Positions 13,635-63,800 of a stretch of DNA of 64,000 bases are shown here, piece after piece. Within the stretch, counting starts at the first letter, position 1. Each line of letters starts with the position of its first letter. A program made the translations under genes and the position numbers. This DNA is from Bacillus niameyensis (GTDB taxonomy: Bacteria > Bacillota > Bacilli > Bacillales > Bacillaceae_C), in assembly GCF_001375535.1 (NCBI RefSeq), contig NZ_LN831197.1:1968530-2032529 (forward strand). Direction: 5' to 3'. The notes beneath the pieces were generated by a model, which saw nothing but the letters and a program-made list of their open reading frames with translations, did no database searches and was not told the origin of the DNA.

Positions 13635-14575
13635 TTTATAACACCCTTTTTTACGGGGACATGCGTATTTTGAATGATCCAATCTATAATTTGTTCAGGA
13701 GTGATTCCATGATATTTAGATTCAGAATTTAAAATAAGGCGATGAGAAAAAACATACGGCGTAAGGAACTGAACATCATCCGGAATTACAAAATCTCTGC
13801 CTGATATAAAAGCATATGCTTGGGAAGCTTTCATCAAAGCAATAGAGGCGCGTGGACTAGCACCCAAGTACACATTCTCGTTTTCTCTTGTTTGTCTTGC
13901 AAGTTCAACAATATAATATTTTATTGCCTCATCCACATAGACAGTTTTAACTTGATGCTGCATTGCGAGTAAATCCTGCAAGGATATAACAGGTTCCAAC
14001 TCATCGATAGGTGGTAGCATTTGCGATCTAGTTAATACTTCTACTTCTTCCATCTGATTCGGATAACCCATTTTCATTTTTAAAAGGAAACGATCTAACT
14101 GGGCTTCTGGAAGTGAGTATGTCCCCTCATATTCAATCGGATTTTGTGTAGCCATAACGAAGAATGGCTTTTCAAGTTGAAGTGTTACACCATCAACTGT
14201 CACACTTTTTTCTTCCATACCTTCTAACAGGGCTGATTGCGTTTTAGGCGAAGTCCGATTTATTTCATCTGCTAGGATAATATTTCCAACAATTGGTCCT
14301 GGTCTAAAGGTAAATTCCATCTCTTTTTGATTGTAAACAGATACTCCAAGTACATCGGATGGCAGTAAATCAGGTGTAAACTGAATCCGTTTGAACGAAG
14401 CATTGACAGATCTAGCAAGAGCACGAACCATCATCGTTTTCCCGACTCCAGGTACATCTTCAAGCAGAACATGTCCTTCAGCTAAAAGAGCTACTAAGCT
14501 AAGTGTTGCAATATCCGTTTTTCCAATCATGACTTTTTCTATATTTTGAATAATATTTTTAACCTGCTGCATCAT
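13631..14575 (-). CDS. yeaC: MoxR-family AAA ATPase (YeaC)
   Basis: An AAA+ ATPase of about 314 residues. Walker A is EDVPGVGKT, Walker B is ILADEINR, sensor 1 is VMATQNPIEYEGTY and an arginine finger lies in EAQLDRFLLK. MoxR ATPases act as chaperones for von Willebrand A or DUF58 partners, and the partner gene follows directly with an ATGA overlap. The start is uncertain. ATG 14575 and the next ATG at 14572 follow GGATGGGG, a TTG at 14590 has AGGTG 6 nt upstream, and a GTG at 14599 is also in frame. All variants add only a few non-conserved residues. Confidence 0.93.
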   Translation of the reverse strand: MMQQVKNIIQNIEKVMIGKTDIATLSLVALLAEGHVLLEDVPGVGKTMMVRALARSVNASFKRIQFTPDLLPSDVLGVSVYNQKEMEFTFRPGPIVGNIILADEINRTSPKTQSALLEGMEEKSVTVDGVTLQLEKPFFVMATQNPIEYEGTYSLPEAQLDRFLLKMKMGYPNQMEEVEVLTRSQMLPPIDELEPVISLQDLLAMQHQVKTVYVDEAIKYYIVELARQTRENENVYLGASPRASIALMKASQAYAFISGRDFVIPDDVQFLTPYVFSHRLILNSESKYHGITPEQIIDWIIQNTHVPVKKGVIK

Positions 14576-14690
14576 ATCCCCATCCGCCAATGAAAGCACC
14601 TACTATCTATTTTTTTAACAGAGATGTTTTCTATTCATATACATGATAACCTCTGTTTTGATTTTTTCGTTTATTTTAATTATAACAAAA

Positions 14691-14735
14691 AATACAGGTA
14701 AAAAGTCACTTTTGTGAGTGCTTTTCACCTGTATT
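14691..14735 (-). terminator. Terminator after the NAD salvage operon
   Basis: AATACAGGT and the facing CTTTTCACCTGTATT form a long stem with an inner TCAC/GTGA pairing. On the minus strand a T run follows. It lies 17 bp past the nadE stop and separates it from the MoxR operon. Confidence 0.85.
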
Positions 14736-14751
14736 TTCTTTTGCTAGTATT

Positions 14752-15579
14752 TTAGCGCCAAAAATCATCAAATAAGTTAATCGGCATATGCCGTTTATGG
14801 GCTGATTTTTGATAGAGAGCTTCAATTGTATTCTTTGCTGTTTCCGAAACTTGTTTACCTTCCAAGTAATCGTCAATGTCGTTATAGGAGACACCGAGGG
14901 CCACTTCATCAGGAAGCATGGGACGATTGTCTTCTAAGTCAGCAGTTGGTACTTTAAAATACAGATGTTCAGGACACCCTAACTCCTTTAACAATTCTCG
15001 CCCTTGTCTTTTATTTAAACGATAGATCGGAACCAAATCTGTTCCTCCGTCACCGTACTTCGTGTAAAAACCTGTTACTGCTTCAGCGGCATGATCAGTC
15101 CCGAGTACAACACAATTGTGGAATGCTGCAATACTATACCAAACCTTCATCCGCTCACGTGCTTTTTCGTTTCCTTTTGCAAAATCAGAAATCGGCACTC
15201 CTGCGTCTAGCAACGCTTTTACACTCGCATCGACAGCGTCTTTTATTTTCACTTCATATGTGATTGAAGGATCAATAAACTTAGTAGCATCTACCATATC
15301 ACTTACATCTTTAGGAATGCCATATGGCGTTTGCACTCCAATGAATTTATATTTGTCTGTATTATTCTCTTTGTTTAGTTCATCTATAGCTAATTGAGCC
15401 AACTTCCCTACAAGAGTAGAATCCTGCCCACCGGAAATTCCAAGAACGTACCCATTGAAAAACTCATACTTTTGTAAGTATTCTTTCATAAAATCGATAC
15501 TCTTTCGAATTTCTTCTTTTACATCAATTTGCGGTTTCACTTTTAGCTCTTCAATAATTTTCTTCTGAAGTCCGGCCAT
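14752..15579 (-). CDS. nadE: NH3-dependent NAD+ synthetase
   Basis: Amidates nicotinate adenine dinucleotide to NAD+ using ammonia and ATP. Its 275 residues match the short ammonia-dependent bacterial form with no glutaminase domain. The ATP pyrophosphatase P-loop is SGGQDST (near residue 50), and the conserved [13 protein letters not shown] and [12 protein letters not shown] motifs are present. The start at 15579 follows AGGTGG by 5 nt. It lies 15 bp after pncB, third in a pncA-pncB-nadE operon that salvages nicotinamide through nicotinate to NAD. Only the NadD step is missing locally. Confidence 0.97.
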
Positions 15580-15594
15580 TTAAACCACCTCTTT

Positions 15595-17058
15595 TCACTT
15601 TCTTAAACGGTTCACCTTTTCCTTAATATCCTCAATATTTTTCATTTTATTATCCCAACATTTTTGACTAAGATCGACAGGGTATTCCTCCGGATTAAGT
15701 GAACGTTTGTATTCATCCCACAACAAGTTTAAATTAGCTTTCGCATATTGCTGAATTTCGGTCAGCTCAGGAAGTTCATAAACAAGTTTCCCGTCCTCGT
15801 AGATCGTTTCATGCAGATTGATAGCATCAAAATCCGTTACAAATTTGCTGACAAATGTATGAACAGGGTGGAACATTTTAATCCGGCTTTCTTCTTCCGG
15901 CTTTTCATCCCAAAGCGTAATATAATCCCCTTCGGATTTATGATTTAAGCGATTAATAATTCGATAAACTTTTTTCTTCCCAGGTGTAGAAACCTTTTCA
16001 GCATTGCTTGAAATTTTTATCGTATCGACTAGTTCACCATCTTCATTTTCAATCGCAACTAATTTATAAACTGCTCCTAAAGCAGGCTGGTCATAGGCGG
16101 TAATGAGCTTAGTTCCAACACCCCAAGAATTGATCTTTGCCCCTTCTGCTTTTAAGTGGTGGATCGTATATTCATCCAAGTCACTTGAAGCAAAAATTTT
16201 CGCTTCTGTAAATCCTGCATCGTCAAGCAGTTTTCGCGCCTTTTTCGATAGAAAAGCCATGTCTCCACTGTCTAAACGGATTCCTTTGAAATTGATTCGA
16301 TCCCCAAATTCTTTTGCTACTTTAATGGCCGCTGGAACGCCTGATCTTAGCGTATCATATGTATCGACTAGGAAAATGCAGTCCTTATGGGCCTCGGCGT
16401 ATTTTACAAAAGCTGTGTAGTCATCGCGATACGCTTGAACCATCGAATGTGCATGTGTACCAGCAACAGGCATTCCGAATAATTTTCCAGCCCTCACATT
16501 ACTTGTACCGTCAAAACCGCCGATAAATGCGGCTCTTGTCCCCCATACTGCTGCATCCATTTCTTGTGCTCGTCTCGTTCCAAACTCGAGAGCTACTTCG
16601 TCCCCAACTACTTGCTTGATTCGGGAAGCCTTCGTTGCAATTAATGTTTGGTAATTCACAATGTTAAGCATCGCTGTTTCAATAAGTTGTGCCTCTATGA
16701 TTGGTGCTTCTACTTGGATAATCGGTTCGTTGTTAAAAACAACTTCCCCTTCCTTCATTGAACGAATAGTCCCTGTAAAACGCAAATCCCGCAGAAAGGC
16801 AATAAAATCGGGTTCATATTCAAGATCTTGTAAATAGGCAATGTCTGTTTCACTAAATCGGAAATCATTAATAAAGCGAATGACTTTTTCTAGACCGGCA
16901 AAAATGGCATAGCCGTTTGCGAATGGCAGTCTGCGGAAGTATAGATCAAACACAGCCTTCCGATTGTGAATTCCATCGCGCCAATATGCTTCTGCCATAT
17001 TTATTTGATATAAATCTGTATGTAACGTTAAACTGTCATCCCTATAGTGGTTATTCAT
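15595..17058 (-). CDS. pncB: Nicotinate phosphoribosyltransferase
   Basis: Converts nicotinate and PRPP to nicotinate mononucleotide with ATP hydrolysis. Its 487 residues fit the Bacillus YueK-type enzyme. Conserved parts include LHTDLYQINMAEAYW at the N-terminus, GTHAHSMVQAY with the histidine that is phosphorylated in the family, KGIRLDSGDMAFLSKKAR, and SWGVGTKLITAYDQPALG in the phosphate-binding region. It lies 13 bp after pncA and 15 bp before nadE, in one minus-strand operon. Confidence 0.96.
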   Translation of the reverse strand: MNNHYRDDSLTLHTDLYQINMAEAYWRDGIHNRKAVFDLYFRRLPFANGYAIFAGLEKVIRFINDFRFSETDIAYLQDLEYEPDFIAFLRDLRFTGTIRSMKEGEVVFNNEPIIQVEAPIIEAQLIETAMLNIVNYQTLIATKASRIKQVVGDEVALEFGTRRAQEMDAAVWGTRAAFIGGFDGTSNVRAGKLFGMPVAGTHAHSMVQAYRDDYTAFVKYAEAHKDCIFLVDTYDTLRSGVPAAIKVAKEFGDRINFKGIRLDSGDMAFLSKKARKLLDDAGFTEAKIFASSDLDEYTIHHLKAEGAKINSWGVGTKLITAYDQPALGAVYKLVAIENEDGELVDTIKISSNAEKVSTPGKKKVYRIINRLNHKSEGDYITLWDEKPEEESRIKMFHPVHTFVSKFVTDFDAINLHETIYEDGKLVYELPELTEIQQYAKANLNLLWDEYKRSLNPEEYPVDLSQKCWDNKMKNIEDIKEKVNRLRK

Positions 17059-17071
17059 ATCACTAACTCCC

Positions 17072-17635
17072 TTATTCAGATACTACGGTTACCTTTGCAC
17101 CTAGTGTATTTGTAAAATGGCCAAGTGCCCATTCATGGCCCGCTTGATTAAAACTTGCCACTGCATCTTTGTAAATCGCAATTTTGAAACCTTTATTATA
17201 AGCTTCAATAGCCGTATGCAAGACACATATATCCGTACACACTCCAACGATATGAAGCTCATCAATTTCACGCTCACGCAACTTTATTTCCAGATCTGTT
17301 CCAGCAAATGCACTATACCTCGTTTTATCCATATAATAAACATTTTCAGCTTGTTTATTCTGTTCGTATAGTTGTTGCAGTGAGCCATACAAATTTCGAC
17401 CAGAGGTTCCTTCAACATTATGAACAGGAAAAAGGTTAGCCTCTGGATGATAAAGGTCATTTTCTTTATGTTTATCAATGGCAAAGACAACAAAATCATT
17501 TGCACTGATAAACTTGCGTGTAATGTTTACAATCGCCTGTTCAATTTGTTGACCTGGTAATCCACATGTCAATTTTCCATTGTCCGCCACAAAATCAACG
17601 GTATAATCTACATTTAACAATGCTTTTTTCGACAT
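17072..17635 (-). CDS. pncA: Nicotinamidase (isochorismatase-like cysteine hydrolase)
   Basis: Deamidates nicotinamide to nicotinate, the entry step to NAD salvage. The 187-residue protein has the family triad: aspartate in NVDYTVDF (near residue 9), lysine in DKTRYSAF, and cysteine in GVCTDICVLHTA. The start at 17635 has GGAGG about 8 nt upstream. It is the first gene of the pncA-pncB-nadE operon, and its promoter region directly abuts the 20-bp satellite array. Confidence 0.95.
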   Translation of the reverse strand: MSKKALLNVDYTVDFVADNGKLTCGLPGQQIEQAIVNITRKFISANDFVVFAIDKHKENDLYHPEANLFPVHNVEGTSGRNLYGSLQQLYEQNKQAENVYYMDKTRYSAFAGTDLEIKLREREIDELHIVGVCTDICVLHTAIEAYNKGFKIAIYKDAVASFNQAGHEWALGHFTNTLGAKVTVVSE

Positions 17636-17680
17636 CTTCCTACCTCCATTCTATAGGCATAGACTGTTAATTTATTTACT

Positions 17681-17686
17681 ATTATA
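17681..17686 (-). promoter_or_regulatory. Possible -10 box of the pncA operon
   Basis: On the minus strand a perfect TATAAT lies 46 nt upstream of the pncA start in an A/T-rich stretch. No good -35 sits 17 nt away; the nearest is TTCAAC with a 20-nt spacer. The repeat array begins about 55 bp further upstream. Confidence 0.4.
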
Positions 17687-17740
17687 CTTTAAAAAAATAT
17701 TTTTGCGTTGAAATTTGGATTTTTAAAAAGAAACGATATC

Positions 17741-19617
17741 AAGATTTACTGCTGAGTTTCGGATTTTATGAGCGAGATTCGGATTTTATGAGCGAGATTC
17801 GGATTTTATGAGCGAGATTCGGATTTTATGAGCGAGATTCGGATTTTATGAGCGAGATTCGGATTTTATGAGCGAGATTCGGATTTTATGAGCGAGATTC
17901 GGATTTTATGAGCGAGATTCGGATTTTATGAGCGAGATTCGGATTTTATGAGCGAGATTCGGATTTTATGAGCGAGATTCGGATTTTATGAGCGAGATTC
18001 GGATTTTATGAGCGAGATTCGGATTTTATGAGCGAGATTCGGATTTTATGAGCGAGATTCGGATTTTATGAGCGAGATTCGGATTTTATGAGCGAGATTC
18101 GGATTTTATGAGCGAGATTCGGATTTTATGAGCGAGATTCGGATTTTATGAGCGAGATTCGGATTTTATGAGCGAGATTCGGATTTTATGAGCGAGATTC
18201 GGATTTTATGAGCGAGATTCGGATTTTATGAGCGAGATTCGGATTTTATGAGCGAGATTCGGATTTTATGAGCGAGATTCGGATTTTATGAGCGAGATTC
18301 GGATTTTATGAGCGAGATTCGGATTTTATGAGCGAGATTCGGATTTTATGAGCGAGATTCGGATTTTATGAGCGAGATTCGGATTTTATGAGCGAGATTC
18401 GGATTTTATGAGCGAGATTCGGATTTTATGAGCGAGATTCGGATTTTATGAGCGAGATTCGGATTTTATGAGCGAGATTCGGATTTTATGAGCGAGATTC
18501 GGATTTTATGAGCGAGATTCGGATTTTATGAGCGAGATTCGGATTTTATGAGCGAGATTCGGATTTTATGAGCGAGATTCGGATTTTATGAGCGAGATTC
18601 GGATTTTATGAGCGAGATTCGGATTTTATGAGCGAGATTCGGATTTTATGAGCGAGATTCGGATTTTATGAGCGAGATTCGGATTTTATGAGCGAGATTC
18701 GGATTTTATGAGCGAGATTCGGATTTTATGAGCGAGATTCGGATTTTATGAGCGAGATTCGGATTTTATGAGCGAGATTCGGATTTTATGAGCGAGATTC
18801 GGATTTTATGAGCGAGATTCGGATTTTATGAGCGAGATTCGGATTTTATGAGCGAGATTCGGATTTTATGAGCGAGATTCGGATTTTATGAGCGAGATTC
18901 GGATTTTATGAGCGAGATTCGGATTTTATGAGCGAGATTCGGATTTTATGAGCGAGATTCGGATTTTATGAGCGAGATTCGGATTTTATGAGCGAGATTC
19001 GGATTTTATGAGCGAGATTCGGATTTTATGAGCGAGATTCGGATTTTATGAGCGAGATTCGGATTTTATGAGCGAGATTCGGATTTTATGAGCGAGATTC
19101 GGATTTTATGAGCGAGATTCGGATTTTATGAGCGAGATTCGGATTTTATGAGCGAGATTCGGATTTTATGAGCGAGATTCGGATTTTATGAGCGAGATTC
19201 GGATTTTATGAGCGAGATTCGGATTTTATGAGCGAGATTCGGATTTTATGAGCGAGATTCGGATTTTATGAGCGAGATTCGGATTTTATGAGCGAGATTC
19301 GGATTTTATGAGCGAGATTCGGATTTTATGAGCGAGATTCGGATTTTATGAGCGAGATTCGGATTTTATGAGCGAGATTCGGATTTTATGAGCGAGATTC
19401 GGATTTTATGAGCGAGATTCGGATTTTATGAGCGAGATTCGGATTTTATGAGCGAGATTCGGATTTTATGAGCGAGATTCGGATTTTATGAGCGAGATTC
19501 GGATTTTATGAGCGAGATTCGGATTTTATGAGCGAGATTCGGATTTTATGAGCGAGATTCGGATTTTATGAGCGAGATTCGGATTTTATGAGCGAGATTC
19601 GGATTTTATGAGCGAGA
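17741..19617. repeat. 20-bp satellite array, about 92 identical tandem copies
   Basis: From 17761 to 19600 the 20-mer ggattttatgagcgagattc repeats exactly 92 times with no substitution or indel. A partial copy follows (19601-19617), and one decayed copy precedes it (about 17743-17760, GATTTACTGCTGAGTTTC). There are no spacers, so it is not a CRISPR array. The period is not a multiple of three and every frame on both strands has a stop within 60 bp, so it does not encode a repeat protein. It lies between the pncA promoter and the lacZ terminator. Perfect homogeneity implies very recent expansion, active homogenisation or an assembly effect. Function unknown. Confidence 0.98.
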
Positions 19618-19651
19618 AAACGCCGTTCACCAAGTGAACGGCGTTTTCTCG
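19613..19651 (-). terminator. lacZ terminator hairpin bounding the satellite array
   Basis: CGAGAAAACGCCGTTCAC pairs perfectly over 18 bp with GTGAACGGCGTTTTCTCG across a 3-nt loop. It starts 3 bp past the lacZ stop. The outer bases of its left arm (CGAGA) are the end of the last partial satellite copy. The A/T bases within the stem supply the T run in both directions. Confidence 0.85.
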
Positions 19652-19653
19652 TT

Positions 19654-22812
<3,159 letters not shown>

Positions 22813-22889
22813 CTACTTATTTTTATTTTACACAACTTTCACTAATGTCTAAAGTAAATTAATTAACAAACTTTAAATTATTCCCTCCC

Positions 22890-23621
22890 CTAATTTAATT
22901 CCTTCAATAACCAAGCAAATACTTGCTTATCTGCAGCTAAGTGAAAGGATGGTTTATTAAAATAACTTTGATTAAGCAATTTGGTCGCCATTGTATTTTT
23001 GATGAAATCAGCTTCAGCGTGACCCACCCTCCAACGATCATGGTGAATGTCACCTCGATATACCCGATTCCTTTTCGTGACAAAAAAGCAGTACCTTTCA
23101 AATAACCAAAATTCTAGACTACCTTGTTTTGGAATAAACAGGGGAGATGTTGGACGATATTGAATCTGTAATTTCTCTTCTTCTCCCCTGTTGCTATGAA
23201 ATTGAGTTATATCACCATCCTGATCTATTTTCATTTGGGCATATCGATACGGTAAAAGTGCACCGATTTTCGCTCCTAAAACAGCCATCCATTTATTAGC
23301 ATCCATAGACAGAAAATAAATACCAGGTGTCCCTTTATATTTTACATACGTCCGAATATTCAGTTCTAAATACTTACCTATATATGGGAATGAGGGCTGA
23401 CAGCGAAATCTCATTCCAGTAACGCGAAAAGGAATAATACCTAACCATGCCTGTCCATTAAATAAATCTAATTCAAATTGGGGAGGAACCTCTGCACGTA
23501 ATATTCCTTCCGGTACAATCCAATGGCAAAAAAGTAATTGATGCCATTTCTGTGTCATGATCCAAGGTGTTTGAGGCACTGGAAACGGCCTCTGAGTTAT
23601 TTCTAAAAATTCCTTATGCAA
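22890..23621 (-). CDS. DUF2071 (YqjF-like) protein
   Basis: A 243-residue protein with the DUF2071/YqjF pattern. It begins with a short region ending MTQKWHQLLFCHWIVP, then VPPQFELDLFNGQAWLGIIPF, and later GIYFLSMDANKW. The fold is related to acetoacetate decarboxylase-like proteins, but no enzymatic activity has been assigned to the family as far as I know. The start is a TTG at 23621 with AGGAGG 8 nt upstream; no closer ATG exists. It lies 107 bp ahead of lacZ on the same strand and could be co-transcribed with it. No membrane or export signals. Confidence 0.85.
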   Translation of the reverse strand: MHKEFLEITQRPFPVPQTPWIMTQKWHQLLFCHWIVPEGILRAEVPPQFELDLFNGQAWLGIIPFRVTGMRFRCQPSFPYIGKYLELNIRTYVKYKGTPGIYFLSMDANKWMAVLGAKIGALLPYRYAQMKIDQDGDITQFHSNRGEEEKLQIQYRPTSPLFIPKQGSLEFWLFERYCFFVTKRNRVYRGDIHHDRWRVGHAEADFIKNTMATKLLNQSYFNKPSFHLAADKQVFAWLLKELN

Positions 23622-23689
23622 TGTAAGAACCTCCTGACTGGATTATCCTTAGCTTTCCCTATCTAAAAAAGACAATCCGCCACTATAAC

Positions 23690-23715
23690 AAAAAAAGGAC
23701 TAGCATAACCAGTCC
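23690..23715 (-). terminator. Terminator of the DUF1906 gene
   Basis: On the minus strand GGACTGG-loop-AGTCC is followed by seven T residues. The stem begins 4 bp past the stop codon at 23719. Confidence 0.8.
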
Positions 23716-23718
23716 CAA

Positions 23719-24603
23719 TTACCACAAATAATTAAGCAGTTCTCCTTTAAAAAGATTTGTGTCAATATTACAAGTTTCTGCATCAATTCCATATTGCCAG
23801 CCCAATACGAAGCTGCCTTCTGGAGCCACCGGTTTGTACTCAGGTGCTTTTTCCTTAGATGTTATTCCTTCTTGAGGGTAAGCTGTCCATAAAATTGTCT
23901 TGTTTTTTAAGTCTTTATTTTCTTCAGCGGCTGCACCGAATACGGAAAAAAGTTTTTGTTCTTCTGAAAAGACACCATAGATTCCTGGCTCATATTTAGA
24001 CTTCGAAACTTCATCAAACCAACCTTTTATAAATTCAGCATCGACTTGAAAATCCGGTTCAATGTCAGCAAAAATAGCCTTTCCTTCAGGCACACCCAAT
24101 TGTTCAGCCATTTTAATAGCCTCATTTGCATGATCTTTACCATGATCATAGCCTCTTGCGTCGGTTATTAAGTTGTAAATGACTAATATTTTAATATCTT
24201 TTGAGTGTAAAAACTTTATTTCATCTTTAGTTAGAGCTGTTGATACATTTTCAATATCTCCTAAATATCTCCCCCACACTGCTGGTTTATCAAAATGATC
24301 AACAACACACGAATAAAACTTATCATCCGTTAAATTTGCCGAATCGACTCCCCAATATATTTTTTCTTTATCTTTGTCCTTTTCTTTATCTTTATTTTTA
24401 TCTTTATCTTCTTCCTTATTATTATCTTTGTCCTTTTCTTTTTCCTTCTCTTTGTCTTTTTCTTCACTGTCGACCTGTTCTTGATTATTATTATCATGCT
24501 CACTAATTGAATTCCGTTCTAAGATGCTGAGCATATAGAAAAATAGTGGGACTATGAATATAGCTATAGCAATTTTTAAATATAACTTGCCCTTTTGGCT
24601 CAC
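23719..24603 (-). CDS. Membrane-anchored DUF1906 (Rv2525c-like) glycoside hydrolase-like protein
   Basis: A 294-residue protein. One hydrophobic anchor (residues ~9-27) is followed by a strongly charged linker of alternating Lys, Asp and Glu (~43-82). The DUF1906 domain runs to the end and carries YWGVDSANL, WGRYLGD, IKILVIYN, AIFADIEPDF and FVLGWQYG. DUF1906 is a TIM-barrel domain related to glycoside hydrolases acting at the cell wall. The aspartate and glutamate of FADIEPD are candidate catalytic residues. The GTG start at 24603 has GGAGGG 7 nt upstream. I infer an outward-facing domain held from the membrane by an extended linker. Substrate unknown. Confidence 0.8.
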   Translation of the reverse strand: MSQKGKLYLKIAIAIFIVPLFFYMLSILERNSISEHDNNNQEQVDSEEKDKEKEKEKDKDNNKEEDKDKNKDKEKDKDKEKIYWGVDSANLTDDKFYSCVVDHFDKPAVWGRYLGDIENVSTALTKDEIKFLHSKDIKILVIYNLITDARGYDHGKDHANEAIKMAEQLGVPEGKAIFADIEPDFQVDAEFIKGWFDEVSKSKYEPGIYGVFSEEQKLFSVFGAAAEENKDLKNKTILWTAYPQEGITSKEKAPEYKPVAPEGSFVLGWQYGIDAETCNIDTNLFKGELLNYLW

Positions 24604-57857: not shown

Positions 57858-60800
57858 TTATTCCGCTCTTCTTCTACGATAGAAAAGGAACAGAGATAAA
57901 CCAATGATCAACAATCCTACTCCAAGCAACATCTTATTATAGTAATTTGTAGCTGTATTTGGTAATTCGTGATTTGGATCTTTTGGTGTTGTACTTGGAT
58001 CTTTACCGTTACCAATAGTTGATCCCGGTTTATTTGATTCTGGTTTATTTGGTTCTGGTCTATTTGGTTCTGGCTTGTTAGGTTCTGGTCTTTCAGGCTT
58101 TGGTGACTCAGGTGTTTTATGATTAACAGCTTTGACCTTTGTTACTTCGGCTTGCCCCTTCTCAATTGTAAAGAGGATAGGTGTCTGATCCAATTCATAA
58201 CCTGAAGGTGCTTTTACTTCTACAAACTGATAATCACCTGGTTTCAAGTTAGAGACAATAAGTTTTCCTGCTTGATCTGTTGTTAATCCTGTTTGAAGGA
58301 TGTTTCCAGCATGATCTTGCAACTCGAATACTGCCCCTTCTAAAACTTCACCGTTCTCGTTATACTTTGTCAATTCAACGGTACCGAAGATTAGTTTATT
58401 TGTAATGTCATAACCATCTATAGTCATTTCATACCCAGTAACTGCCTGCTCATTAATCGTGTAGGTGTACTCTTTACCATTTTCATCAAACTTTTCCAGA
58501 TTGCTAAAATGATAGGTCCACTCGTCGCTAGCAGTCACTTCTTTCGTCACAATGACTTTGCCGTTTTGCAAAAGCTCTACGACGATAAAGTCTGGTCGAT
58601 CTTGAGGCTCATCATCTTTCCATGTCTTAGATCCAGAAACTTCTGTTTGACCAACTCGCACGTTCGTAATGTCAAAGCCGTCTATCGTTGTTTCATAACC
58701 GACTACTTCCATTTCCTGAACCGCGTATTTGTATTCCACGCCATTTTCATCGTATTTCGCTAATTCTGTAAAACTATACTGCCAGTTACTCTCTGCCGTG
58801 ACTTCTGTGGAATCTACTACTTTTCCGTTCTGAAGTAAGTTGACAGTGATAGATGCTGGGCGATCTGATGACTCATCATCTTTCCAGATCTTGCTGCCAG
58901 TGACTTCTGTTTTACCGATACGAAGGTTAGTGATATCGTAACCGTCTACCTTTGTTTTATAACCTGCTACTGCCTCTTCTTCAACAGTATAGGTATAAGC
59001 TCTGCCATTCTCATCATATGCATCAAGATCGGTAAATTCATGTTTCCAATCATTTTCTGCCTTCATTACGACTGTTTGAATGACTTCACCATTTTGAAGC
59101 AAATGAACTTGGATAGATGCTGGACGATCTTCCGCATTATCATCTAACCATCCTTTAGTTACTTCAACAGACGTTTTGTCTGTACGGGTATTCGTAATAT
59201 CAAATCCATGAATTTCTGATTTATATCCTGGGACACCGTGCTCCTTCACTGTGTACTGGTACGCAACACCATTTTCATCGTATTTCGCTAAATCTTTGAA
59301 ACTGTATTTCCAGTCATCCTTCGTCGTTACTTCAACAGTATCGATCACGACTCCGTTTTGAAGCAAGTTCACTTTGATAGATTCTGGACGATCGTTAGAA
59401 TGATCATCTTTCCATGTTTTCGTTCCTTCTACAGAAGTTTTGCCTACTCGTACGTTCGTAATGTCGTAGCCATCTACTGTAGATTCGTAACCTTTAATCG
59501 GCTCTTCTTTTACAGTATATTTGTAAGCTACACCATTTTTATCGTATTTCGCTAAACCTGAAAAACTGTACTTCCAGTCTGTTGCTGCTGTTACTTCTTC
59601 CGTTTCGATAACCTCACCGTTTTGGAGAAGGTGTACTTTAATCACTTCTGGACGATCTTGAGAGTTATCGTCTTTCCATGTTTTCGTTCCTTCTACAGCT
59701 GTTTGACCAACACGAAGGTTTGTGATGTCATAACCATCTACTGTCGATTCATAGCCTTTGATTGGCTCTTCCTTGACAGTATATTTGTAAGCAACACCGT
59801 TCTCATCGTACTGATCTAATCCAGCAAAACGATATTGCCAGTCAGTTGCCGATGTTACTTCTTGTGTTTTAAAAATAGCACCGTTTTGAAGAAGGTGTAC
59901 TTTAATTACTTCTGGACGATTTTGGGAATTATCGTCTTTCCACGTCTTTGTCCCCTCTACAGTTGTCTTTCCAACACGAACGTTTGTGATGTCATAACCA
60001 TCAATAGTGGATTCATATCCATTAATCGCCTTTTCTTTTACAGTATAAGTGTAAGCAACACCGTTTTCATCGTACTTTTCCAATTCAGCAAAGCTATATT
60101 TCCAATCATCCTTGGCCGTAACTTTTTTAGAATCTACCACTATTCCATTTTGCAGTAATTCGACTGTTATGGATGTTGGACGATCTTCGGAGTTATCATC
60201 TTTCCAGATTTTCTTTCCAAGAACTTCAGTTTTGCCAACACGGATGTTGGTGATATTAAAGCCGTCAATGACTGTTTTATAGCCATCTACATGCTCTTCC
60301 TTAACAGAATAAACATATGCTTTTCCGTTTTCATCATAAGCATCCAGGTCAGCAAAAATATATTTCCAATCATTTTCCGCCTTCACTTCAGCAGTTTTCA
60401 CGGCTTTACCATTTTGAACCAAGTGAACTTGGATAGAGTGCGGACGATCTTCTGCGTTATCATCTAACCAGCCCTTAGTTACTTCAACAGATGTCTTTTC
60501 GGAGCGAGTATTCGTAATATCAAATCCTTGGACTTCCGATTTATATCCTGGGACACCGTGTTCTTTTACTGTGTAATGATATGCGACCCCATTTTCATCA
60601 TACTTTTCTAAGTCTATGAAACTGTATTTCCAGTCATCCTTCGCTGTCACTTCAACAGTATCAATTACAACATCATTTTGAAGCAAGTTGACTTTGATGG
60701 ATTCTGGACGATCGTTGGAGTTATCATCTTTCCATGTTTTCGTTCCTTCTACGGAAGTTTTGCCAATACGAAGATTCGTGATGTTGAATCCTTCTACTAA

Positions 60801-63800
60801 GGATTCATATCCTTTAACTGCTTCTTCATTCACAGTATATTCGTAAGCCACACCATTTTCATCGTATTTTTCTAAATCTTTGAAGCTGTATTTCCAGTCT
60901 GACTCAGCTGTCACTTCTCGCGTATTAATCACTTCACCATTTTGAAGGAGATTCACTTTAATCACTTCAGGACGATCTTTGGAGTTATCGTCTTTCCATG
61001 TTTTTGTTCCTTCTACGGAAGTTTTGCCTACTCGAACGTTTGTGATGTCAAAGCCATTAATACTAGTGTTATAGCCTTTAACTGCCTTTTCTTGAACTTC
61101 ATACGTGTAAGCTTTTCCATCAGGGTCAAAAGCCGGTATATCGACAACTTCAAATACCCAACCATCTGCTTTAGAAATTCTAATTGTATCAACCAGTTCT
61201 TTCTTGTCATCAGCAATCGATCTGAATAACTCTACTTCAATTGAGTCTGGACGATTTGCTGCATTATCATCAAGCCATGTTTTTGATATTTCAATCGACT
61301 TTAGGTTAGTACGTGTATTTGTAATCTTAAAACCATTGACTTTTGATACATAACCTGGCACATCATGTTCTTTAACAGTGTATTCATAAGCTTTACCAGT
61401 TTCATCATACTTCGGCAGATCCGTGATGATTAATTTCCAATCATTTTCTTTTGTTATTTCGTATTCTTTATAAAAAGCACCGTTTTGCAGTAAATTAACT
61501 GTAATTGTGTCTGGACGATCTATTTCATTTTCATCTTTCCACAATTTGATGACTTCAACTTCGGTTTTACCGACTCGTAAGTTAGTAATATCGTAGCCTG
61601 CTATAGATTTTTCGTAGCCATTAACAGCTTCTTCATCAACGGTATATGCAATTTCTTTTCCTTGCTCATCATACTTCTCAAGGTTTGTGAATGCATACTT
61701 CCAATCTGAATCGGCAGTCACTTCAACCGTCTTTCCAGTTTTCTCACCATTTGCCAGTAAATGAACAATGATGGATTCCGGACGATCTATTGAACCATCA
61801 TCTAGCCATGTTTTTGTTCCTTCTACTGAAGTTTTACCAACACGGAGGTTAGTAATGTCGAAACCGTTTATCGATGTTTCATAGCCTTCTACTGCTTTTT
61901 CCTTCACTTCATACGTATAAGCTTTCCCGTCTTCATTAAATGCTGGAAGGTTTTTTACTTCTAATGACCAATTTGCATCTCCTGTAAGTGTGTATGAAGC
62001 AACTAATTCCTTTTCTTCATCAGTAACGGATCTAAACAATTCGACTTCAATTGAATCTGGGCGGTCGGCTGAATCATTATCAAGCCATGTCTTCTTCAGT
62101 TCAATCGATTTCACATCTGCGCGGGTATTGATGATATCAAAGCCATCAATTCTAGTTTGGTATCCTGGAACTGGTAATTCATTGATCGTGTACTCAATTT
62201 CATTACCATCTAAATCATATTTTGCTAAATCTGTGAATGTATACTTCCAGTCTCCATTATCATTCGCGGTTACTTCTTGTTCTTTTACGACTGTTTTACC
62301 ATTCATTACCCTCACAGTAATTGAATTCGGACGGTCTATCGTGGCATTGTTATTATCTTTCCACGTCTTTACTCCTGATATATCGATTGTTTCCTGTGTG
62401 TTTGTTATGTTAAAGCCGTTAATTTCTGATTGATAACCTGTGACTTTTTCTTCCTCAACCGTATACTTAATTTCTTTTCCTTCCGAATCAAACTGAGCTA
62501 GTTCTGTGAAACTATATTTCCAGTTTGTTTTAGCTGAGACTTCCACTTTATCAATCTCGATTCCATTTGCAAGTAAATTTACCGTAATGGATTCTGGACG
62601 ATATTGTTCATCTACTTCAACCCACGTTTTTTCACCAGTGACCTTTGTAGTTCCTGTTCTTACGTTTGTAATGTCATAGCCATTAATTATTGTTTCATAA
62701 CCATCTATTTGTAGTTCAGCTACTGTATATTTAATTGCTATTCCATTATCATCATAAGCCTCTAAATTAGTGAACTTATACATCCAATTTGTTTCAGCTG
62801 TTACTGGAGCTCTGTCAACTTCTTTGCCGTTCGACAATAGTTGAACAGTAATTTCAGTTGGACGATCTTCCGACCCAGTATCTTTCCAAGTCTTCTTTCC
62901 TGCAACATTAATTTTATCTGTTCTAATGTTGGTAATGTCGAAGTCGTCAATTTTAGTTTTGTATCCCGGAACTGGCAGTTCATTAATTGTGTACTCAATT
63001 TCATTACCATCTGAGTCATACTTTACTAAATCTGTGAATGTATATTCCCAGTCACCATTGGCGTCCGCGATTACTTCCTGTTCTTTTATAACTGTTTCAC
63101 CATTCATTACCTGAACGGTAATTGATTCAGGACGACCCCCGCCATTATCTTTCCACGTTTTAGTTCCAGAAATCTCGATTGTTTCTTGTCTGTTTGTAAT
63201 GTTATAACCGTCTACTTCAGACAGATAACCTACCACCTTATCTTCCTTAACCGTGTACTTGATTTCTTTTCCTTCTTCATCAAACTGATCAAGACCCGTG
63301 AATACATATTTCCAGTCATCTTTTTCTGTTACTTCTATGTTCTTCCCAGTTGGCTCACCATTGGCAAGTAAGTTAACTGTAATTGAATCCGGGCGATACT
63401 GTTCATCCACTTCAACCCATGTTTTCTCACCAATTACATCAATAGTGTCCGTTCGCAGATTTGTAATCTTATAGCCATTTTCTGTTGGTTCATTACTGCT
63501 AGTATAACCTTTGACTGCTTTTTCTTTTACTTTATACGTATATGCTTTTCCTTCTGAATCAAATTCAGCCAAATTTTTGAAGGTATATTTCCATTTACCT
63601 TTCTCATCCGCTTTAATTATTGTATCCAGATCAGTTAAGTGGTTACCGTTTCGATAGAGTTCAACAGTTATTTCACCTGGACGGTCACCTGTTTCATTCC
63701 CATTATCTTTCCACTCTTTTTCTACTGTTACTGCTGTTTCACCTGTACGAACATTTGTAATCTTATAACCTTTGTCTGTTTTTTCAATGTCCTTTAGCGT

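What the first reader, a model, noticed from the sequence alone, without database searches (positions are those of the whole stretch)
17741..19617. Perfectly homogeneous 20-bp satellite with about 92 copies beside the NAD salvage operon
The sequence shows 92 exact tandem copies of one 20-mer plus one partial and one decayed copy, with no variation across 1.84 kb. Bacterial tandem arrays of this length are rare outside coding genes, and this one cannot encode a repeat protein. The 20-bp period with one T-tract per unit places the tracts almost every two helical turns, so a curved or protein-coated region is possible. Candidate roles, all inferred: a decoy or nucleation array for a DNA-binding protein, a chromosome-organising site, or a tunable spacer next to the pncA promoter. 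An assembly expansion is the main alternative.
Basis: partly seen in the sequence, partly recalled or inferred. Interest (0 to 1): 0.8.

Follow-up and report, generated by a model that had tools for sequence, protein, structure and literature searches.

The report
Long non-coding 20-bp tandem-repeat array
A stretch of DNA behind a bacterial gene repeats the same 20 letters 93 times without coding for protein; it belongs to a known but unexplained group of repeats in Bacillus-like bacteria, and its 8-letter core turns up in similar arrays of related genera, which gives a defined bait for finding whatever binds it.

Summary
The array is real: window 17758-19617 holds 93 identical 20-bp units, non-coding, between the terminator-like hairpin of a lacZ-type gene and pncA. 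It is not alone. The same genome has a second array of 90 identical units, one base different from the first, beside an identical hairpin, and two older, heterogeneous arrays. It fits the published class of 20-21-nt Bacillus tandem repeats (PMC8161180, text parts 1-4 of 5 read): known kind, unknown function. Added here: the core TATGAGCG is shared across genera (pairs in 30 of 397 genomes of the order; controls 4, 0 and 9 of 397). Single-step core spacing is 20 or 21 bp in 698 of 717 cases, on one strand. Arrays favour gaps between convergent genes (30 of 63; background 30 of 249), ignore transcription direction (14 same, 14 opposite), and persist at orthologous sites between species. Best reading: a recently homogenised member of an old array family whose core is a recognition site for an unidentified DNA-binding protein. 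A neutral satellite is a close rival. A pncA-specific role is unsupported. No reads were available to confirm copy number.

The parts
17758..19617 (+). Array 1: 93 identical 20-bp units (TTCGGATTTTATGAGCGAGA), core TATGAGCG on the + strand
17741..17757 (+). Decayed edge copy; with the first array bases it reads GAGTTTCGG, the base variant that is fixed in array 2 of the same genome
   Evidence: sequence; the reading is mine
19613..19651 (.). 39-nt inverted repeat (terminator-like hairpin behind the lacZ-type gene); its 5' arm overlaps the last array unit; the identical 39 nt border array 2
   Evidence: not scored as a terminator by the simple scan, probably because the T run lies inside the stem
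19654..22803 (-). GH2 beta-galactosidase gene; 36 bp between its stop and the array
17636..17757 (-). 122-bp 5' region of pncA between array and start codon (TATAAT-like hexamer about 17681-17686 read by eye; the scan lists no minus-strand promoter pair there)
17072..17635 (-). pncA-type gene (isochorismatase domain)
14752..17058 (-). pncB- and nadE-type genes, adjacent and on the same strand

Best explanation
The array is a non-coding intergenic minisatellite of the known 20-21-nt Bacillus class. SHOWN: it is one of four arrays found in this genome with related units; it and array 2 are uniform within themselves but differ from each other; arrays with the same core TATGAGCG occur in many Bacillales genera at 20/21-bp spacing, on one strand, often behind genes and between convergent genes, and several persist at the same site in different species. 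INFERRED: each unit carries a recognition site for a sequence-specific double-strand DNA-binding protein, repeated on the same face of the helix so that the protein can line up along the array. Arrays settle behind terminators, where they disturb no promoter, and may act there as a bound block (nucleoid anchoring, or insulation between converging transcription units). Unit number changes fast by slippage or unequal exchange, and arrays 1 and 2 were homogenised recently. Class membership I hold at about 0.93; the confidence below refers to the protein-binding mechanism.
For: Core shared beyond chance: TATGAGCG pairs at period 19-22 in 30 of 397 genomes (910 matches, 198 of them in this genome; sums by hand), reversed core 4 of 397 (14 matches), permuted core 0 of 397, its reverse 9 of 397 (12 matches). 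Spacing: of 838 neighbouring cores within 70 bp in 91 Bacillales loci, 356 are at 20 bp, 342 at 21 bp, 19 at 18, 19 or 24 bp, and 121 at 39-42 or 59-63 bp; in 0 of 91 loci do cores of both strands lie within 150 bp (the scan that fetched the loci allowed periods 13-24). Core kept better than spacer: in walks guided by spacer likeness alone, 595 of 958 further units (62%) have the exact core against 15% expected from the best spacer columns; 633 of 1190 (53%) against 9% and 435 of 609 (71%) against 24% at two other thresholds. Core-guided walks: 0.93-1.00 per core column against 0.46-0.82 in 71 arrays. Placement: 30 of 63 arrays in convergent gaps against 30 of 249 other gaps, 5 of 63 in divergent gaps against 68 of 249; co-directional arrays 14 same and 14 opposite strand, 23 of 28 nearer the upstream stop. 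Hairpins within 110 bp of 37 of 85 arrays against 11 of 85 random stretch pairs. Persistence: arrays flanked on both sides by aligned DNA at 6 sites in 5 locus pairs of different species, flank identity 73-91%, same orientation (orientations worked out by hand). Recent homogenisation: lacZ-tail copies beside arrays 1 and 2 differ at 7 of 51 bases while neither array has an internal difference.
Against: No binding protein was identified, and I ran no search for one. In this genome's older arrays 3 and 4 the core is only a little better conserved than the rest (0.90 against 0.81; 0.93 against 0.84; exact core in 18 of 33 and 15 of 26 units). Single TATGAGCG copies outside arrays are not enriched (11 seen, 16.4 expected). 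Distribution is patchy: 30 of 397 genomes of the order, and with a threefold pattern 2 of 16 genomes of the genus. This genome and congeners near the same genes carry arrays of unrelated 20-21-bp and 50-52-bp units, so this core is not required. The loci were found by requiring three exact cores, which biases the core upward.
Confidence: 0.45

Rival explanations
1. A neutral satellite: arrays arise by replication slippage near terminator hairpins, grow and homogenise by unequal exchange, and survive only where they disturb nothing; the shared core reflects common descent of old arrays and copying between loci.
For: Uniform arrays 1 and 2 with a difference between them; arrays 1-3 end in or at a hairpin; unrelated unit families near the same genes in congeners and elsewhere in this genome; patchy distribution; avoidance of divergent gaps is also what purging from promoters would give; single cores not enriched; weak core preference in arrays 3 and 4.
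Against: Core survives better than spacer in spacer-guided walks, spacing is held to 20/21 bp, and arrays with the core persist at sites whose flanks have diverged by 9 to 27%.
Confidence: 0.38
2. The array acts as RNA (a small RNA or 3' extension that sponges RNA or Hfq), one of the suggestions in PMC8161180.
For: That paper and PMC8625621 (part 1 of 3 read) say that 52-nt repeats of B. coagulans are transcribed according to RNA-seq. The + strand of array 1 folds somewhat better than shuffles (z -2.35).
Against: Array strand is independent of the direction of the flanking genes (14 same, 14 opposite); the minus strand, which would be read with the lacZ-type gene, folds worse than shuffles (z +1.62); no Rfam match at gathering threshold in window 14000-24000.
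Confidence: 0.08
3. Assembly artefact: a short array inflated or smoothed by the assembler.
For: No reads available; perfect uniformity over 1.8 kb is what a smoothed consensus would look like.
Against: Arrays 1 and 2 keep a consistent one-base difference in every unit, and arrays 3 and 4 of the same assembly keep variation. All four lie in one contig of 4.67 Mb.
Confidence: 0.05
4. A tunable regulatory spacer of the pncA operon.
For: The array lies 122 bp before the pncA start.
Against: None of the 15 congeners has the unit pair; in 14 of 14 congeners looked at an open frame abuts pncA; arrays elsewhere lie behind unrelated genes.
Confidence: 0.04

Closest known systems
20-21-nt tandem repeats of Bacillus (Subirana and Messeguer 2021, PMC8161180; text parts 1-4 of 5 and found passages read)
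   Same: Constant 20-21-nt unit, non-coding, several related arrays per genome, a short conserved signal in the units, patchy across species; the authors too suggest a protein polymerising on the DNA, or a small RNA, and note that 20-21 nt is two helical turns.
   Different: They report species-specific families (except B. simplex and B. muralis, which share some) and no sequence conservation; the one 21-nt signal they print is TCGCGG in B. weihaiensis. Here one 8-mer core is shared by records under 12 genus names. The words terminator, convergent, orientation and orthologous do not occur in their main text. 93 and 90 identical units are long against the 4-10 repeats they give as usual for the 52-nt class.
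51-53-nt tandem repeats of Bacillus (same paper)
   Same: Same kind of place: congeners carry 51-52-bp arrays behind lacZ or upstream of pncA, and this genome has 50-52-bp arrays elsewhere.
   Different: Unit length and sequence unrelated.
Plasmid iterons (recalled)
   Same: Direct repeats of about 20 bp on the same helical face, bound by a replication initiator.
   Different: No replication gene among the flanking genes scanned, and arrays scattered over a chromosome.
Intergenic satellites of Leptospira interrogans (PMC6749651, abstract and passages)
   Same: Dispersed families of non-coding satellites in a bacterium.
   Different: Described there as families with long repeats; sequences not compared.

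Membership tests
20-21-nt Bacillus tandem repeats | Repeat size 20-21 nt, at least four repeats, most of equal length | tested here: met
   93.0 units of exactly 20 bp
20-21-nt Bacillus tandem repeats | Not part of a protein-coding gene | tested here: met
   Longest open run 19 codons in six frames
20-21-nt Bacillus tandem repeats | Several related arrays in one genome | tested here: met
   Four arrays found: 93, 90, about 34 and 26 units
20-21-nt Bacillus tandem repeats | Short signal conserved in the units of a genome | tested here: met
   The bases GAG of the core are invariant in arrays 3 and 4 (pairwise identity 1.00) and in the uniform arrays 1 and 2; exact TATGAGCG in only 18 of 33 and 15 of 26 units of arrays 3 and 4
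20-21-nt Bacillus tandem repeats | Sequence specific to the species | tested here: inconclusive
   Full unit pair (up to 3 mismatches) in this genome only, of 60; but the core is shared across genera
CRISPR array | Repeats separated by unique spacers, with cas genes | tested here: not met
   No spacers; no cas domain among the seven flanking window genes scanned
REP/BIME-type repeat | Palindromic unit folding as a hairpin | tested here: not met
   Minus strand of the array folds worse than shuffles; plus strand only by pairing between units
Plasmid iterons | Next to a replication-initiator gene on a plasmid | tested here: not met
   Flanking genes scanned are metabolic and other non-replication genes, on a 4.67-Mb contig
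VNTR locus | Copy number varies between strains of the species | not testable with these tools
   One genome per species held

The most novel reading that the evidence does not exclude
TATGAGCG arrays are an ancient, order-wide platform: a conserved but unidentified Bacillales protein coats them two helical turns at a time in the gaps between converging genes, acting as a chromosomal insulator or anchor, and the other 20-21-bp and 51-52-bp families (two and five helical turns) are alternative sites for the same or sister proteins.
Probability: 0.2. Interest if true: 0.85.

Novelty: new member of a known kind. Interest (0 to 1): 0.5.

Why it matters
The function of constant-size tandem repeats in Bacillus-like bacteria is an open question. 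A core shared across genera, two-turn spacing and a bias to convergent gaps turn that question into a direct test: one defined bait, with a core-scrambled control, in several array-bearing genera. If a protein binds it, a class of bacterial satellites gains a function; if none does, neutrality becomes the better reading.

Tried and rejected
Coding repeat protein: rejected. Chains of coupled short reading frames (each ATG overlapping the next TGA in 20-bp arrays): in-frame stops in the spacers of 253 distinct 20-bp units are not specially avoided (18 of 759 codons in the ATG frame; 26 of 1012 and 45 of 759 in the other two). Known RNA family: none in window 14000-24000 at gathering threshold. 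Phage-borne: two stretches in viral contigs, one with an 11-bp unit and one with three units, so no sign of this kind of array there. Fixed orientation to replication: dnaA at C6:3024257, minus; if forks run both ways from there, arrays 1 and 2 point one way and 3 and 4 the other (my reading). Enrichment of single cores: none. The array of the one other TATGAGCG-bearing congener (G011) as an orthologue of arrays 1-4: only the repeats align. Chi-like role: considered, not pursued. Curvature: one TTTT run per 20 bp, not modelled. Literature: full-text searches for TTATGAGCG and for TTTATGAGCG or CGCTCATAAA gave 94 and 38 papers; of the 20 and 15 listed, no title is about a repeat (listings only). 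The 2020 J Bacteriol paper on the class is not held (one search asked with a wrong DOI). Supplementary tables of PMC8161180, which might list TATGAGCG units, could not be read, so I do not claim that the core is unprinted.

Rows dropped: 26 of the 117 stretches were set aside as non-Bacillales by record title (in only 25; L126 stayed in by oversight, as one divergent array and none). In one search arrays at locus edges were not counted; gene calls there are longest-ORF calls of at least 100 aa, and ORFs lying 30% or more in an array were dropped. The walks can run past array ends, and one array may be walked more than once. The stem threshold was chosen by me.

Full report
OBSERVATION. The array is in the sequence as described. 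Perfect 20-bp periodicity covers window 17758-19617, 93.0 units without a mismatch (TRF 17754-19617). It is preceded by one decayed copy. It cannot code: no frame is open for more than 19 codons. It lies 36 bp from the stop of a GH2 beta-galactosidase gene and 122 bp from the start of pncA; both genes are on the minus strand.

SAME GENOME. Exact GATTTTATGAGCGA occurs 93 times on the plus strand and 90 times on the minus strand. The 90 form array 2 (L021 5749-7555 = C6:3077748-3079554), 90 units identical among themselves and different from array 1 at one base (GAGTTTCG instead of GAGATTCG). Array 2 lies between convergent genes. Both arrays run into the same 39-nt hairpin, followed by a stretch of lacZ 3' end that differs at 7 of 51 bases. 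So the two places share an old duplicated segment, or array 2 sits behind a lost lacZ copy, while each array has been made uniform since. The edge copy of array 1 still shows the array-2 base (sequence). Two further arrays are heterogeneous: array 3 (C6:2460718-2461392, 33.8 units, 84% matches) and array 4 (C6:4271830-4272349, 26 units, 87%). Array 3 ends against a hairpin whose arm resembles its unit (likeness by eye). My patterns could miss arrays with other cores: a sample of 18 stretches of 20 kb from this genome holds several arrays of other 20-21-bp and 50-52-bp units.

RELATIVES. The unit pair with up to 3 mismatches is in this genome only, of 60 searched. A looser threefold TTATGAGCG pattern is in 2 of 34 family genomes: this one and one congener (G011) with a different 20-bp unit, at a place that does not align with arrays 1-4 outside the repeats. 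At pncA, a same-strand open frame of 196-240 codons ends within 22 nt of the pncA start in 14 of 14 congeners looked at (the fifteenth, G005, has only a 44%-identical match). In three congeners (G004, G009, G013) a lacZ-type gene lies about 4 to 5 kb upstream of pncA; behind that gene G009 and G013 carry 51-bp arrays, and G003 has a 52-bp array upstream of pncA. The interval between these genes thus hosts different satellites in different species.

THE WIDER FAMILY. Their titles carry 12 genus names: Sporosarcina, Fictibacillus, Pontibacillus, Oceanobacillus, Lysinibacillus, Metabacillus, Bhargavaea, Rossellomorea, Pallidibacillus, Tenuibacillus, Scopulibacillus and Bacillus. In 397 genomes of the order, TATGAGCG pairs occur in 30 (910 matches, hand sum) against 4 (14) for the reversed core, 0 for a permuted core and 9 (12) for its reverse. 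Several of the 30 have only one or two matches and could be chance. Single-step spacings are 20 bp (356), 21 bp (342) or others (19); two- and three-step spacings are 39-42 and 59-63 (121); in 0 of 91 loci do cores of both strands lie within 150 bp. The rest of the unit varies between and within arrays. In one complete chromosome record (behind L092) the 70 pairs lie at five places spread around the chromosome. Because the loci were chosen by core, I repeated the unit walk guided by spacer alone: 595 of 958 further units kept the exact core, against 15% expected from the best spacer columns (at other thresholds 633 of 1190 against 9% and 435 of 609 against 24%). Against this, arrays 3 and 4 of the present genome show only a small excess, and single cores outside arrays are not enriched.

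PLACE AND STRAND. Of 63 arrays with both neighbours in view, 30 lie between convergent genes, 28 between co-directional and 5 between divergent genes; other gaps of 60 bp or more in the same loci are 30, 151 and 68 (binomial P about 2e-11 for convergent and 2e-4 for divergent, length-weighted). Between co-directional genes the array strand agrees with the genes in 14 and opposes them in 14, and 23 of 28 lie nearer the upstream stop. A strong stem lies within 110 bp of 37 of 85 arrays, against 11 of 85 random stretch pairs from the same loci (stems listed). Independence of transcription direction speaks for a double-strand DNA role over an RNA role. Arrays flanked on both sides by aligned DNA occur at six sites in five locus pairs, with flank identities of 73, 76, 91, 87 and 82% (L114/L127 at two sites, L038/L091, L041/L049, L046/L133, L075/L115), all in the same orientation by my working-out; further pairs align on one side only. 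Array 1 of this window lies between co-directional genes and has no orthologue among the congeners. Replication orientation shows no rule in this genome.

WHAT IT IS. The class was described by Subirana and Messeguer (PMC8161180, text parts 1-4 of 5 and passages): constant 20-21-nt (781 of 4029) or 51-53-nt (1886 of 4029) repeats, non-coding, mostly species-specific, with short conserved signals and unknown function; they suggest a protein polymerising on DNA, nucleoid stabilisation, or small RNA, and note that 20-21 nt is two helical turns. The array of this window meets the class features tested. It goes beyond the description in length and uniformity and in sharing a core across genera. I cannot say that the core is unprinted: the supplementary tables and the 2020 paper were not readable here.

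HOW IT MOST LIKELY WORKS. Shown: family, spacing, placement, persistence at some sites, recent homogenisation. Inferred: each core is a site for a sequence-specific DNA-binding protein that lines up along the array, in places where it disturbs no promoter; slippage and unequal exchange change and homogenise unit number. If the seven lacZ-tail differences accumulated neutrally (about 0.07 per site and lineage), zero differences in 1860 and about 1800 array positions put the last homogenisation at a few percent of that age or less; this is a rough estimate of mine. The neutral-satellite rival explains nearly as much and fails mainly on core survival and the shared core. A special role for pncA is not supported.

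Noticed in passing
L186 9460-9827, L181 504-1113, L178 4206-5239: Congeners carry unrelated 51-52-bp tandem arrays behind lacZ or upstream of pncA, so the same interval hosts different satellites in different species.
   Followed up: partly
L198 4600-4877, L200 1936-2167, L201 2308-2473, L205 1415-1566 and 10841-10968, L206 6274-6444 and 9396-9571: Other 50-52-bp and 20-21-bp (often 41-42-bp double) arrays with other cores in a 360-kb sample of this genome.
   Followed up: no
L021 5663-5752 (beside array 2): A 51-bp remnant of a lacZ 3' end with the same 39-nt hairpin as in the window; no lacZ gene was seen in this locus.
   Followed up: partly
window 57858-63572: 1904-aa repeat protein with an LPNTA-like C-terminal end (a sortase-anchored surface protein by recall); the 264-bp tandem repeats at 59259-61057 lie inside it.
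   Followed up: no
window 23719-24603: Rv2525c-like glycoside-hydrolase-domain protein with a low-complexity Lys/Glu/Asp linker.
   Followed up: no
L176 5788-6452 minus strand, and loci such as L048 and L141: Some arrays (array 4, and 21-bp arrays) are open over about 195-303 codons, probably by chance of the unit sequence; such ORFs could be annotated as repeat proteins.
   Followed up: no
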